The notes beneath the pieces are model-generated. The model was not told where the DNA came from, did not search any database, and saw only the letters and a program-made list of their open reading frames with translations. This document shows, in pieces, positions 10,388 through 12,781 of a stretch of 64,000 bases of DNA. This stretch comes from Pseudomonas yamanorum (GTDB lineage: Bacteria; Pseudomonadota; Gammaproteobacteria; Pseudomonadales; Pseudomonadaceae), in NCBI RefSeq assembly GCF_900105735.1, contig NZ_LT629793.1:4960001-5024000 (forward strand). Direction: 5' to 3'. Positions within the stretch are counted from its first letter, which is position 1; every line of letters starts with the position of its first letter. A program made the position numbers and the translations under genes.

Positions 10388-11446
10388 ATGACGCAAATTT
10401 CCGAACGCCTTCTGGTCCAAGCCCACCTCGACGCTAAGCAGCCCAAGGTGCTGAGCGCCGAAGAAGAGGCGGGCTACCGTGCCGCCATCGCCGCCGAGCT
10501 CAAGGCTCAGGACGCGGTGCTGGTGGCGCACTTCTACTGCGATCCGGTGATTCAGGCCCTGGCCGAAGAAACCGGTGGCTGTGTCTCCGACTCCCTGGAA
10601 ATGGCCCGCTTCGGCGCGGCGCACCCGGCCAAGACCGTATTGGTGGCGGGCGTGCGCTTCATGGGCGAAACGGCCAAGATCCTTACCCCTGAAAAACGCA
10701 TCCTGATGCCAACCCTGGAAGCCACGTGCTCTCTGGACCTTGGTTGCCCGGTGGATGAGTTCTCGGCGTTCTGTGATCAGCACCCCGAGCGCACGGTGGT
10801 GGTTTATGCCAACACGTCGGCGGCGGTGAAAGCACGGGCTGATTGGGTGGTCACCTCCAGTTGTGCGTTGGAGATTGTCGAAAGCCTGATGGATAACGGC
10901 GAGACCATTATCTGGGGGCCGGATAAGCATCTGGGTACCTATATCCAGCGTCAGACGGGGGCGGACATGCTGCTGTGGGACGGTGCGTGCATCGTTCACG
11001 AGGAGTTCAAGTCCAAGCAGTTGGAGGACATGAAGGCGTTGTACCCGGACGCAGCGATTCTGGTGCACCCGGAGTCGCCGACGTCGGTGATCGAGTTGGC
11101 GGATGCGGTGGGGTCGACCAGCCAGTTGATCGCGGCGGCGCAGCGGTTGCCGAACAAGACGTTTATCGTGGCTACTGATCGGGGCATCTTCTACAAGATG
11201 CAGCAGTTGTGTCCGGACAAGGTGTTTGTCGAGGCGCCGACGGCCGGGAATGGGGCGGCGTGTCGCAGCTGTGCGCATTGTCCCTGGATGGCGATGAATA
11301 CCCTGGAGCGTACGCTGCAGTGTTTGCGTGAGGGGAGTAATGAGATTTTTGTTGAGCCTTCGGTGATTCCGCAGGCGGTTAGGCCGCTGAAGCGGATGTT
11401 GGATTTTACGCAGGCGGCTCGGTTGAGGTTGGCGGGGAATGCCTGA
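10388..11446 (+). CDS. nadA: Quinolinate synthase
   Basis: NadA condenses iminoaspartate with dihydroxyacetone phosphate to quinolinate in NAD synthesis, using a [4Fe-4S] cluster. The 352-residue protein shows AHFYCDP, the CSLDLGCP cysteine, VVTSSCALEIV and the C-terminal CRSCAHCPWM cluster motif. The start MTQISERL at 10388 matches family proteins. The last third of the gene is strongly G+T-rich on the coding strand (by hand 44 of 60 bases at 11401-11460, which runs just past the stop, against 28 of 60 at 10441-10500), in step with its closeness to the palindromic element that begins 23 bp after its stop. Confidence 0.97.
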   Translation: MTQISERLLVQAHLDAKQPKVLSAEEEAGYRAAIAAELKAQDAVLVAHFYCDPVIQALAEETGGCVSDSLEMARFGAAHPAKTVLVAGVRFMGETAKILTPEKRILMPTLEATCSLDLGCPVDEFSAFCDQHPERTVVVYANTSAAVKARADWVVTSSCALEIVESLMDNGETIIWGPDKHLGTYIQRQTGADMLLWDGACIVHEEFKSKQLEDMKALYPDAAILVHPESPTSVIELADAVGSTSQLIAAAQRLPNKTFIVATDRGIFYKMQQLCPDKVFVEAPTAGNGAACRSCAHCPWMAMNTLERTLQCLREGSNEIFVEPSVIPQAVRPLKRMLDFTQAARLRLAGNA

Positions 11447-11469
11447 TTTGCGGTGGGTTGGTTTGTGTA

Positions 11470-12276
11470 CATATCCGTTGCTGCGGTAACGGCGGCTTAT
11501 GGTTCCGCTCTTACAGCGGGTCACTTTTGGCAAACGCCCCAAAAGTAACCAAAAGGTCTTTGCCCCACCACTCGGTGCCTCGCCTAGGCTCGGCATGCCC
11601 GCACTCCGGCACGGCTCCGCGGGCCGCCGCGACGGGCCATCCATGGCCCGGCGCGGCTAAATCGGCATCCCTGCCGATTTACCCGCTCCACCGTGCCTAC
11701 TTGCGGCCATCGTGGTTAACGGGGCCCGCAGATCAAGATCAAAAGCAAGAGCACAGCGGCCTACCGGCCGGCTTGAGTGTTTAAAAGCCAAATCAAAAGC
11801 TAAAGCGGGCACGGTCAAATGTGGGAGCTGGCTTGCCTGCGATGGCATCAACTGGGTCTGCCTGATACACCGAGGTGTCTGCATCGCAGGCAAGCCAGCT
11901 CCCACAGAAAAGCAGAGCTGCATCAGCTTCAGATTTGGCTTTCGCTTTGGCTTTTGATCTGGCTTCTAACACTCAAGCCGGCCGGTAGGCCGCTGTGCTC
12001 TTGATCTGCTTTTGATCTTAGGCGCCCCGTTAAACCACGCTGGCCGAACGCAGGCTTTGGAGCGTGGGTAACCCGGCAGGACGCCGGGTTAGCCGCGCTG
12101 GGCCAAGGATGGCCCATCGCGGCGGCCCACGGTCCAAAGCCGGAGTGAGGGCACACCGAGCCTAAGCGAGGTGCCGAGTGGTGGGGCAAGAGCGTTTTGC
12201 TTACTTTTGCGCTTTTCAAAAGTGAGCCGCTGTAAGAGCGGAACCCTAAGCGGCCATAACCGCAGCAACGGATATG
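11470..12276. repeat. Large palindromic composite repeat, copy 1 (807 bp, uninterrupted)
   Basis: Two arms of about 310 bp (11470-11780 and 11969-12276) are imperfect inverted copies of each other and enclose a REP doublet. Both arms begin, reading inwards, with CATATCCGTTGCTGCGG and end with CCGGCCGGCTTGAGTGT or a near copy. Each arm carries smaller hairpins (ATCGGCATCCCTGCCGAT on the left; a CCGGCAGGACGCCGG type on the right). Short reading frames in both orientations (for example those starting MDGPSRRPAEP) recur in copy 2 and have no ribosome sites; they are products of the repeat, not genes. No transposase is encoded and no target-site duplication is evident at the outer ends. The function is unknown. 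Confidence 0.85.
11821..11905. repeat. REP doublet in the centre of composite repeat 1
   Basis: Two inverted copies of GTGGGAGCTGGCTTGCCTGC face each other with a 45-bp spacer. This is the common pseudomonad intergenic REP pair (REPIN-like). Confidence 0.9.
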
Positions 12277-12292
12277 CCCCCAATCTAAAAAC

Positions 12293-12781
12293 CTACTTCT
12301 TTTTCTTCGGAACCCGCACCAACCGCGTATCCGAATAAATGTCATGCCAGCCACGCTTCTGCTTGTCGAACAACGACCAGACAAACCCAAGCCCCAGACA
12401 CAACCACGAAGCAATCGACACCACAAACCGCAACAACGCCTGCCACAGACTAATCCGCGACCCATCAGCGTTCTGCACCCGCACCCCCCAAACCTGCATC
12501 CCTAGGGTCTGCCCCGAATGCGTCCAGAACTTGGCAAAAAACCCAAACAACACAAAAAACAAAATCGTCGACAACAGCGGATCACCATCCAGCGCGCCAG
12601 ACTCAGACAGCGCCCGCAACTTGGCCTCCCCGACAAACCCCATCCACACCAGCTTGTAGATAAAGGCCGTGACGATCAGCAGGGCCGTGCACAACAGGAA
12701 GTCATAGAACATCGCTGCCAGACGACGGCCCAGGCCTACGGCGGGAAACTCGCCTTGGGGGCTCAGCAGGTGTTTCGACAT
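12293..12781 (-). CDS. RDD-family membrane protein
   Basis: The 162-residue inner-membrane protein starts with the family signature (GLGRRLAAMFYDFLLC, the R..D pattern, residues 18-33) and has three hydrophobic segments (about 28-48, 70-88, 118-136). It ends in a lysine run (VPKKKK). RDD proteins are small membrane proteins, some linked to ion transport, but most are uncharacterised. The coding strand is extremely G+T-rich in its 3' half, facing the composite repeat 17 bp away; a terminator separates it from cspA upstream. Confidence 0.88.
   Translation of the reverse strand: MSKHLLSPQGEFPAVGLGRRLAAMFYDFLLCTALLIVTAFIYKLVWMGFVGEAKLRALSESGALDGDPLLSTILFFVLFGFFAKFWTHSGQTLGMQVWGVRVQNADGSRISLWQALLRFVVSIASWLCLGLGFVWSLFDKQKRGWHDIYSDTRLVRVPKKKK

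What the first reader, a model, noticed from the sequence alone, without database searches (positions are those of the whole stretch)
10441..12780. Strand-asymmetric base composition radiating from composite repeat 1
Seen by hand count of G+T per 60 plus-strand bases: 28 at 10441-10500, rising through 40 at 11221 to 44 at 11401-11460 just left of the repeat; then only 14 at 12361-12420 and 13 at 12541-12600 to the right, recovering to 31 at 12721-12780. The left gene (nadA) is on the plus strand, the right one (RDD) on the minus strand. Left plus strand and right minus strand are the strands whose 3' ends point at the repeat. Excess of G+T there equals C-to-T and A-to-G change on the strand that stays single when a break in the repeat is resected 5' to 3'. 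Inference: recurrent breakage or nicking at the palindrome with mutagenic single-strand exposure.
Basis: partly seen in the sequence, partly recalled or inferred. Interest (0 to 1): 0.8.

Follow-up and report, generated by a model that had tools for sequence, protein, structure and literature searches.

The report
One-strand G+T halo around palindromic repeats
In this soil bacterium, DNA on both sides of a large, many-copy palindromic repeat has drifted towards G and T on the strand that points at the repeat, as if that strand were kept and the other recopied, which leaves a readable record of a strand-specific DNA process at dozens of sites.

Summary
In 855.6 kb held of this Pseudomonas chromosome, 44 copies of the palindromic element (834 bp here) were examined: G+T on the strand reading towards the element is about 65% beside it, decaying over some 550 bp; 75 of 87 sides reach the background 95th percentile. 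Gene direction, replication direction, convergent junctions and REP-only sites do not explain it. Orthologous flanks without the element are lower at 11 of 11 sides. At fourfold sites, changes making G or T are raised about 1.8-fold and changes removing them halved, the total is not raised, and gains about balance losses. A strand-polarised process fits best: mutations from the 3'-pointing strand are kept, those from the other lost. I propose recurrent 5'-to-3' removal and recopying of the other strand from the element; keto-biased fixation is the main rival. No break or nick was observed. Both arms match Rfam TwoAYGGAY.

The parts
11455..12288 (.). Element copy 1: 834-bp composite palindromic intergenic repeat
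   Evidence: Outer arms 11458-11537/12209-12288 (84%) and 11540-11670/12079-12209 (82%), inner arms 11746-11781/11968-12003 (100%); predicted to fold as one long hairpin, -376 kcal/mol as DNA, z -28.6 on 20 shuffles; 44 merged copies in 855.6 kb
11820..11906 (.). Central REP-like palindrome of the element (the name REP is recalled)
   Evidence: Inverted repeat 11820-11857/11869-11906; its 20-mers are in 44 of 44 elements; also found alone elsewhere in the held genome
11621..11684 (-). TwoAYGGAY RNA match (RF01731), left arm
   Evidence: 48.5 bits, gathering 43
12046..12148 (+). TwoAYGGAY RNA match (RF01731), right arm
   Evidence: 45.6 bits, gathering 43
10455..11454 (+). Left halo: about 1 kb in which the plus strand is G+T-rich (3' part of nadA)
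   Evidence: nadA last 150 bp 65% G+T, against 41-53% in the 29 relatives
12289..13288 (-). Right halo: minus strand G+T-rich (RDD gene and beyond); extent taken from the genome-wide average
   Evidence: RDD 150-bp bins 69, 71, 63%
10388..11446 (+). nadA, quinolinate synthase, its tail facing the element
   Evidence: PF02445, 346 bits
12293..12781 (-). RDD-family protein gene, its tail facing the element
   Evidence: PF06271, 92 bits
43624..45912 (.). Element copy 2, split by an insertion sequence (pieces 43624-44347 and 45652-45912)
   Evidence: flanks 69% (left) and 63% (right) G+T towards the element in 300 bp
44348..45651 (.). 1304-bp insertion inside element copy 2
   Evidence: Gap between the two element pieces, same length at two other places in the held genome
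44385..45560 (-). IS481-family transposase (391 aa) in that insertion
   Evidence: ORF; Pfam rve_3, rve, HTH and LZ_Tnp_IS481
42624..43623 (+). Left halo of element copy 2; extent from the genome-wide average
45913..46912 (-). Right halo of element copy 2; extent from the genome-wide average

Best explanation
Shown: each element sits at the centre of a symmetric halo of about 1 kb in which the strand whose 3' end points at the element has turned G+T-rich, independent of gene and replication direction, and stronger where the element (or a remnant) is present. Shown by substitution counts: the spectrum inside the halo is strand-polarised. For each complementary pair of changes, the one read from the towards strand is raised and its mirror image lowered, with the pair sum close to normal. 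Inferred: the element, predicted to form a hairpin or cruciform of nearly 400 bp per arm, is a recurrent source of a nick, gap or break at its base, from which the 5'-ended strand is removed outward and recopied from the retained 3'-ended strand. Pre-mutational lesions and mismatches on the kept strand then pass into both strands, while those on the removed strand are erased. Over time the flank records the one-strand spectrum of the kept strand (C>T, C>G, A>G, G>T, T>G), giving G+T enrichment without a higher rate. Resection after SbcCD-type hairpin processing, or mismatch excision starting at a strand end in the element, are two concrete routes.
For: Head and tail sides alike; left/right difference in line with leading-strand bias, and flat controls; orthologues without the element lower at 11 of 11 sides in 0-300 and in 300-600 bp. 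Fourfold near/far ratios with element-bootstrap 95% intervals (43 sides, 28 elements): C>T 1.84 (1.35-2.45), C>G 2.13 (1.46-2.93), A>G 1.35 (0.94-2.08); G>A 0.36 (0.24-0.50), G>C 0.50 (0.35-0.68), T>C 0.79 (0.55-1.07); within-keto G<->T 1.37 (1.04-1.76), within-amino A<->C 0.44 (0.12-0.81). Total rate not raised. AIC: strand-polarised -55659.7 (2 parameters) and -55669.4 (7); keto fixation bias -55651.7 (2) and -55654.7 (4); additive on an unchanged baseline -55539.4 (4) and -55542.5 (6). SbcD gene present (TIGR00619, 168 bits, cut-off 77.65). The element is predicted to fold as one hairpin. The two flanks of element 817991 map about 1.9 Mb apart in G282, as recombination at the element would leave.
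Against: No break, nick or single strand was observed. Flank G+T does not correlate with arm self-complementarity (n=33, rho -0.05), though that range is narrow (73-80%). To polarise mutations this strongly the renewal must be frequent relative to the life of a mismatch, yet a chronic palindrome break in E. coli cost 0.6% growth per generation (PMC4213011, passages), so 44 sites breaking every generation is not credible; nicks, gaps or mismatch-triggered events would be needed. An additive model with six raised types and a free baseline that settles at 0.48 reaches AIC -55658.1 (7 parameters), level with the 2-parameter polarised model. The AIC values use rounded ratios and near exposures worked back from them. 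Six sides where G282 lost the arms relax only suggestively: G282 branch 41 keto gains to 66 losses, G000 branch 84 to 62; the 28 other sides G282 224 to 267, G000 253 to 218 (p about 0.1-0.2 by hand). The halo is weaker in P. antarctica (57.4% in the first 200 bp, then about 50%, 14 sides) and in seven more distant genomes (57.4% over 37 sides, by hand). Nine of 87 own sides are under 55%. Codon positions 1+2 do show a higher total within 300 bp (10.6 against 7.7 per 1000). Rates come from parsimony, and the A<->C class has only 7 events.
Confidence: 0.4

Rival explanations
1. Keto-biased fixation: the element is a recombination or break hotspot, and alleles with G or T on the 3' tail are favoured, by biased gene conversion or by very weak selection for GT-rich tails that hold RecA better. 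Mutation itself is normal.
For: Keto-gain up and keto-loss down with an unchanged total is the pattern expected of a fixation bias; S of about 1.3 fits. RecA filaments are most stable on TGG repeats or TG-rich DNA (PMC3763553, abstract and passages), and the strand in question is the one RecA would coat. In large populations a tiny coefficient would suffice (inference).
Against: It predicts no polarity within classes, yet G<->T is 1.37 and A<->C 0.44, ratio 3.13 (1.53-11.4; none of 1000 bootstraps at or below 1). AIC is 8.0 worse than the polarised model at two parameters each, and 14.7 worse between the larger forms (4 against 7 parameters). No clear enrichment of the P. syringae Chi GCTGGCGC towards the element (5 towards, 3 away in 0-600 bp; 7 and 11 in 600-1500; motif confirmed).
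Confidence: 0.22
2. Additive single-strand mutagenesis: breaks at the palindrome expose the 3' tail, which gains C>T and A>G.
For: Right geometry; C>T and C>G are raised about twofold. Break repair can be mutagenic in stressed E. coli (PMC5542668 and PMC4427277, abstracts in a listing).
Against: Keto-removing rates fall to about half and the total is not raised. With an unchanged baseline all additive forms tried are more than 100 AIC units worse; C>T and A>G alone with a free baseline, -55552.7, is too. Only six added types with a halved baseline fit (-55658.1). Keto gains and losses are near balance (185 and 192 within 600 bp).
Confidence: 0.12
3. Replication effect: the element acts as a small terminus, so forks usually run towards it on both sides and the towards strand is always leading.
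For: The sense is that of leading-strand skew; repair synthesis at a break can be convergent, and RecG prevents divergent synthesis (PMC4752480, abstract and passages).
Against: Leading/lagging third-position G+T differs only by about 53 to 47 in the held stretches although forks there should run one way; the element effect is 80 against 48. The small left/right difference is in line with ordinary leading-strand bias.
Confidence: 0.08
4. Transcription effect: strong transcription towards the element, with repair of the template strand and damage of the other.
For: It would polarise all classes at near-constant total, as seen; most sides are gene tails (62 of 87).
Against: The 25 head sides, where the gene is read away from the element, show the same halo, and fourfold ratios are alike for genes coding towards or away. 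Outward transcription of the RNA motif would give the opposite sense (inference).
Confidence: 0.07
5. Target preference: elements inserted at, or persist at, sites that already had convergent G+T skew.
For: Some sites without the element are also above 50% (for example 5542266 right side, 60.7-66.1% in three relatives), and convergent junctions start at 53.3%.
Against: Own minus outgroup difference is +8.3 and +9.0 points, positive at 11 of 11 sides; nadA last 150 bp: 5 genomes with the element at 61-65%, one with a 56-bp remnant at 57%, 24 without at 43-57%.
Confidence: 0.05

Closest known systems
Chronic SbcCD cleavage of an interrupted palindrome with RecA-dependent repair (E. coli)
   Same: Long imperfect palindrome, possible hairpin cleavage, two-sided geometry with 3' tails pointing at the site; SbcD gene present here
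   Different: There a 246-bp palindrome is cut once per replication cycle without a rise in rifampicin-resistance mutation (PMC4213011, passages); here dozens of natural 0.8-kb elements, and the evidence is an evolutionary trace, not a break
Strand-coordinated mutation clusters at breaks (kataegis, damaged ssDNA at yeast breaks) (recalled)
   Same: One-strand sense relative to a central site and kilobase scale
   Different: Those add mutations; here the total fourfold rate is not raised and opposite changes are suppressed
Biased gene conversion at recombination hotspots (recalled)
   Same: Substitution bias decaying around a hotspot, gains balancing losses
   Different: The bias follows strand (G+T) rather than G+C, and is mirror-imaged about the centre
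Intergenic repeats of the P. fluorescens group (R0, R2, R178, R200 and IR1_g/REP)
   Same: Many intergenic copies, inverted repeats, tail-repeat-tail preference (PMC2718517, passages)
   Different: Those families are 50-352 bp; this composite is about 830 bp. No compositional halo appears in the passages seen
TwoAYGGAY RNA (RF01731)
   Same: Both arms score above the gathering cut-off
   Different: Listed as a probable RNA in human gut, gamma-Proteobacteria and Clostridiales (PMC2864571, table row); here it is a mirror-image pair inside a multi-copy palindrome

Membership tests
TwoAYGGAY RNA (RF01731) | Covariance-model score at or above the gathering cut-off | tested here: met
   48.5 and 45.6 bits against 43 in the window; 13 of 13 further element loci have at least one hit, 12 of 13 have two on opposite strands
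TwoAYGGAY RNA (RF01731) | Expressed as an RNA | not testable with these tools
   No transcript data
P. fluorescens intergenic repeat families R0-R200 | Match to a published family consensus | not tested
   Consensus sequences are in a supplement that could not be read; only sizes and copy numbers were seen
P. fluorescens intergenic repeat families R0-R200 | Excess of tail-repeat-tail placement | tested here: inconclusive
   62 tail and 25 head sides of 87; no formal test against all gene pairs was made
SbcCD-type palindrome break site | Long hairpin-forming palindrome | tested here: met
   -376 kcal/mol, z -28.6, none of 20 shuffles as stable
SbcCD-type palindrome break site | Host encodes SbcCD | tested here: met
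   SbcD only: TIGR00619 over cut-off; SbcC not searched
SbcCD-type palindrome break site | Effect grows with palindrome quality | tested here: not met
   rho -0.05, n=33, narrow range
SbcCD-type palindrome break site | DNA is broken there | not testable with these tools
   Needs end mapping
Additive break-associated mutation hotspot | Raised total substitution rate near the site | tested here: not met
   Fourfold rate 67.6 and 71.1 (0-300, 300-600 bp) against 73.5 beyond 2 kb; codon positions 1+2 are raised within 300 bp, 10.6 against 7.7, which may be relaxed constraint
Biased gene conversion hotspot | Between-class changes asymmetric, within-class changes unaffected | tested here: not met
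   Within-keto 1.37, within-amino 0.44, ratio 3.13 (1.53-11.4); only 7 amino events
Replication terminus or fork barrier | Skew no larger than full leading/lagging bias | tested here: not met
   80 against 48, leading/lagging about 53 to 47

The most novel reading that the evidence does not exclude
Large palindromic repeats in the P. fluorescens group are standing sites of strand-directed DNA renewal: at each of dozens of elements the 5'-ended strand is repeatedly removed outward for about 0.5-1 kb and recopied from the 3'-ended strand, so that only one strand's lesions become mutations. The composition of the flank is a fossil recorder of that process and of the one-strand mutation spectrum, including strong C>G, and it has rewritten the codon usage of neighbouring genes without raising their synonymous rate.
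Probability: 0.35. Interest if true: 0.9.

Novelty: new variant of a known kind. Interest (0 to 1): 0.78.

Why it matters
Dozens of natural replicates per genome, present in several related genomes and absent at the same sites in others, make a strand-specific DNA process measurable from sequence alone. If the renewal model is right, the flanks separate the two strands' mutation spectra, which ordinary comparisons cannot easily do, and show what palindromes do in wild bacteria over evolutionary time. If fixation bias is right, it is a strand-oriented form of biased conversion or of selection for RecA-friendly tails. Either way it distorts codon usage, GC-skew plots, gene-transfer tests and substitution models near repeats.

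Tried and rejected
Coding-strand or gene-end composition: rejected, head sides equal tail sides; in the first 100 bp, 90 convergent-junction sides without the element have 53.3%, 210 codirectional tails 49.4%, 210 codirectional heads 51.3%, 78 divergent-junction flanks as counted by the script 51.5%, and 30 REP-only sides 52.6%.

Replication side effect: by position I first saw a left/right difference; GC skew then showed the plus strand leading from 3.0 to 7.09 Mb and the minus strand from 0.04 to 2.1 Mb in the held stretches, so the difference is in line with ordinary leading-strand bias.

Chi selection: no clear towards-element excess of GCTGGCGC; GCTGGTGG is enriched (11 against 2 in 0-600 bp), as any G+T-rich motif would be.

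Young insertions: sought in G282; the sites that looked empty hold pieces of the element with the halo kept, so no clean young insertion was found. Palindrome quality as predictor: no correlation.

Rows dropped: 43 unmerged pieces were used, so some flanks were the inner sides of split elements; one search merged pieces to 44 elements and left out those under 590 bp, two of them (5443478, 5930724) cut by the end of a fetched stretch. The left side of 5911308 has only 8 bp held; its value printed is meaningless and it is not counted in the 87 sides. Polarised counts use 34 sides and 43 sides of 28 elements out of 87 held, those mapped in the relatives; 600-2000 bp was left out of the near/far contrast. 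The other-genome mean (57.4% in the first 200 bp, 37 sides) was taken by hand, after dropping G282 and G080 loci and three duplicate loci (L123, L129, L130). One search ended with an error only when saving a file, after its results were printed. The outgroup sites lack the element, but several hold REP copies.

Literature: searches listed no report of a strand-composition halo around bacterial repeats, judged from listings only; by the tool's own account most papers of subscription journals are not held.
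Full report
THE OBSERVATION. The repeat at 11455-12288 is a palindromic element with 82-84% complementary outer arms, perfect 36-bp inner arms and a central REP-like palindrome. As single-stranded DNA it is predicted to fold into one long hairpin, -376 kcal/mol against a mean of -164 for 20 shuffles. The left gene is nadA (PF02445) and the right gene RDD (PF06271).

GENERALITY. 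A search of the own genome listed 40 places (only 40 candidates were scored, so there may be more). I fetched their surroundings and found 44 merged elements in 855.6 kb. Averaged over the 84 sides, G+T on the strand reading towards the element falls from 64.1% in the first 100 bp to 52.1% at 900-1000 bp and about 51% beyond. Of 87 sides with 300 bp held, 75 are at or above the background 95th percentile of 59% and 9 are under 55%, for example 462979 right (46.0%), 6221695 left (48.0%) and 751973 left (49.3%).

NOT GENES, NOT REPLICATION. Sides where the gene runs into the element (62) and sides where it runs away (25) give closely similar profiles. At third codon positions the towards strand has 80% G+T (tail) or 70% (head) within 300 bp, against 48-49% beyond 1.8 kb; C falls from 44 to 16% at tail sides. 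Junctions without the element and REP-only sites start at 49-53%. Leading-strand bias is about 53 to 47 at third positions, in line with the small left/right difference.

THE ELEMENT BRINGS THE HALO. At nadA, five genomes with the element have 61-65% G+T in the last 150 bp, a sixth with a 56-bp remnant has 57%, and 24 relatives without it have 43-57%; the 29 relatives have 41-53%. Over six sites and 11 sides, own flanks exceed one to four outgroups without the element by 8.3 points (0-300 bp, 11 of 11), 9.0 (300-600 bp, 11 of 11) and 3.3 (600-1200 bp, 10 of 11). Of 23 own elements with both flanks found together in the held part of G282, which was fetched mostly around its elements, 17 have 712-859 bp between the flanks and 6 have 194-605 bp; those six hold pieces of the element. 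So many of the elements are old in this clade. The halo recurs in Pseudomonas sp. ATCC PTA-122608 (63.5% in the first 200 bp, 61 sides), is weaker in P. antarctica (57.4%, 14 sides), and seven sides in other species give 60.9%. One ATCC PTA-122608 contig has the same length as G304:C52, so I take them as one genome.

WHAT KIND OF CHANGE. Changes were polarised with close relatives. At fourfold sites, per ancestral base, near (<600 bp) relative to far (>2 kb), stratified by codon family: C>T 1.84, C>G 2.13, A>G 1.35, G>A 0.36, G>C 0.50, T>C 0.79, G<->T 1.37, A<->C 0.44, with element-bootstrap intervals. The total rate is 67.6 and 71.1 per 1000 in the two near bins, 75.4 at 600-1000 bp, 66.4 at 1-2 kb and 73.5 beyond; keto gains and losses within 600 bp are 185 and 192. 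So the halo looks stationary. Models that only add mutations on an unchanged baseline fit badly; adding six types fits if the baseline is also halved. A keto-favouring fixation bias fits well. A strand-polarised model, in which each change is raised and its complement lowered with the sum near normal, fits best, because polarity extends to G<->T against A<->C, which fixation bias does not predict. This last point rests on 109 events, seven of them in the amino class, and the model fits use rounded ratios.

HOW IT MAY WORK. The geometry, with the 3'-pointing strand kept on both sides and a length of about 0.5 kb, is that of 5'-to-3' removal of the other strand from an end at the element, followed by recopying. 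The host has SbcD. Element 817991 has flanks about 1.9 Mb apart in G282; the right flank of the window's element was not found within the 20 kb held around its left flank in G080. Against frequent double-strand breaks stands the measured cost of one chronic palindrome break in E. coli, 0.6% per generation (PMC4213011, passages). I therefore favour nicks, gaps or mismatch-triggered excision from the element, with rarer breaks; these steps are inference. Flank G+T does not follow palindrome quality.

WHAT THE ELEMENT IS. It resembles the intergenic repeats described for P. fluorescens (PMC2718517, passages); I could not compare consensus sequences. Both arms score as TwoAYGGAY RNA, a motif listed as a probable RNA (PMC2864571, table row). 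Eleven of 44 elements are split, with 12 inserts of exactly three lengths: 1111 bp (5), 1304 bp (3) and 1464 bp (4), each at its own place in the element. One insert of each length was examined for genes (two of the 1304-bp kind): they encode an IS110-family transposase, an IS481-family transposase and a DDE_Tnp_1 transposase.

VERDICT. Observation confirmed and strengthened; interpretation right in place and geometry, but not in mechanism as stated. The organism is a Pseudomonas near sp. ATCC PTA-122608 (nadA of G304 96% identical; names).

Noticed in passing
11621-11684 (-), 12046-12148 (+); 13 further loci: The Rfam family TwoAYGGAY (RF01731) lies in these Pseudomonas genomes as a mirror-image pair in the arms of a multi-copy palindrome (12 of 13 loci with both), which bears on whether it is a cis-regulatory RNA or part of a repeat element.
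   Followed up: partly
44348-45651; L035:16967-18270; L027:8498-9608; L015:1657-3120: Three insertion sequences of different families (IS110, IS481, DDE_Tnp_1) sit inside the element, 12 inserts in 11 of 44 elements, each kind at its own fixed position (about 694, 107/731 and 63/785 of 834): three unrelated transposases seem to target one palindrome.
   Followed up: partly
Own 817991-818820 against G282; own 4971455-4972288 against G080: The flanks of 817991 map about 1.9 Mb apart in G282, and the right flank of the window's element is not next to its left flank in G080, so rearrangement breakpoints may fall at elements.
   Followed up: partly
G282 sites matching own 4760267, 5322057, 5527666, 809993, 5433594, 5920906; G080 at 5527666: Elements there are shortened to pieces, often outer arm pieces and the central palindrome, while the halo remains.
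   Followed up: partly
Element 11455-12288, 31 unsplit copies aligned: Full-length copies are 81-97% identical to copy 1, yet several 20-mers of the arms and the central palindrome are in all 44 elements (profile), so parts are conserved or homogenised.
   Followed up: no
0-600 bp flanks: Runs of six G are about sevenfold less avoided in the halo than far away, a side effect of C>G and A>G or a possible quadruplex effect.
   Followed up: no
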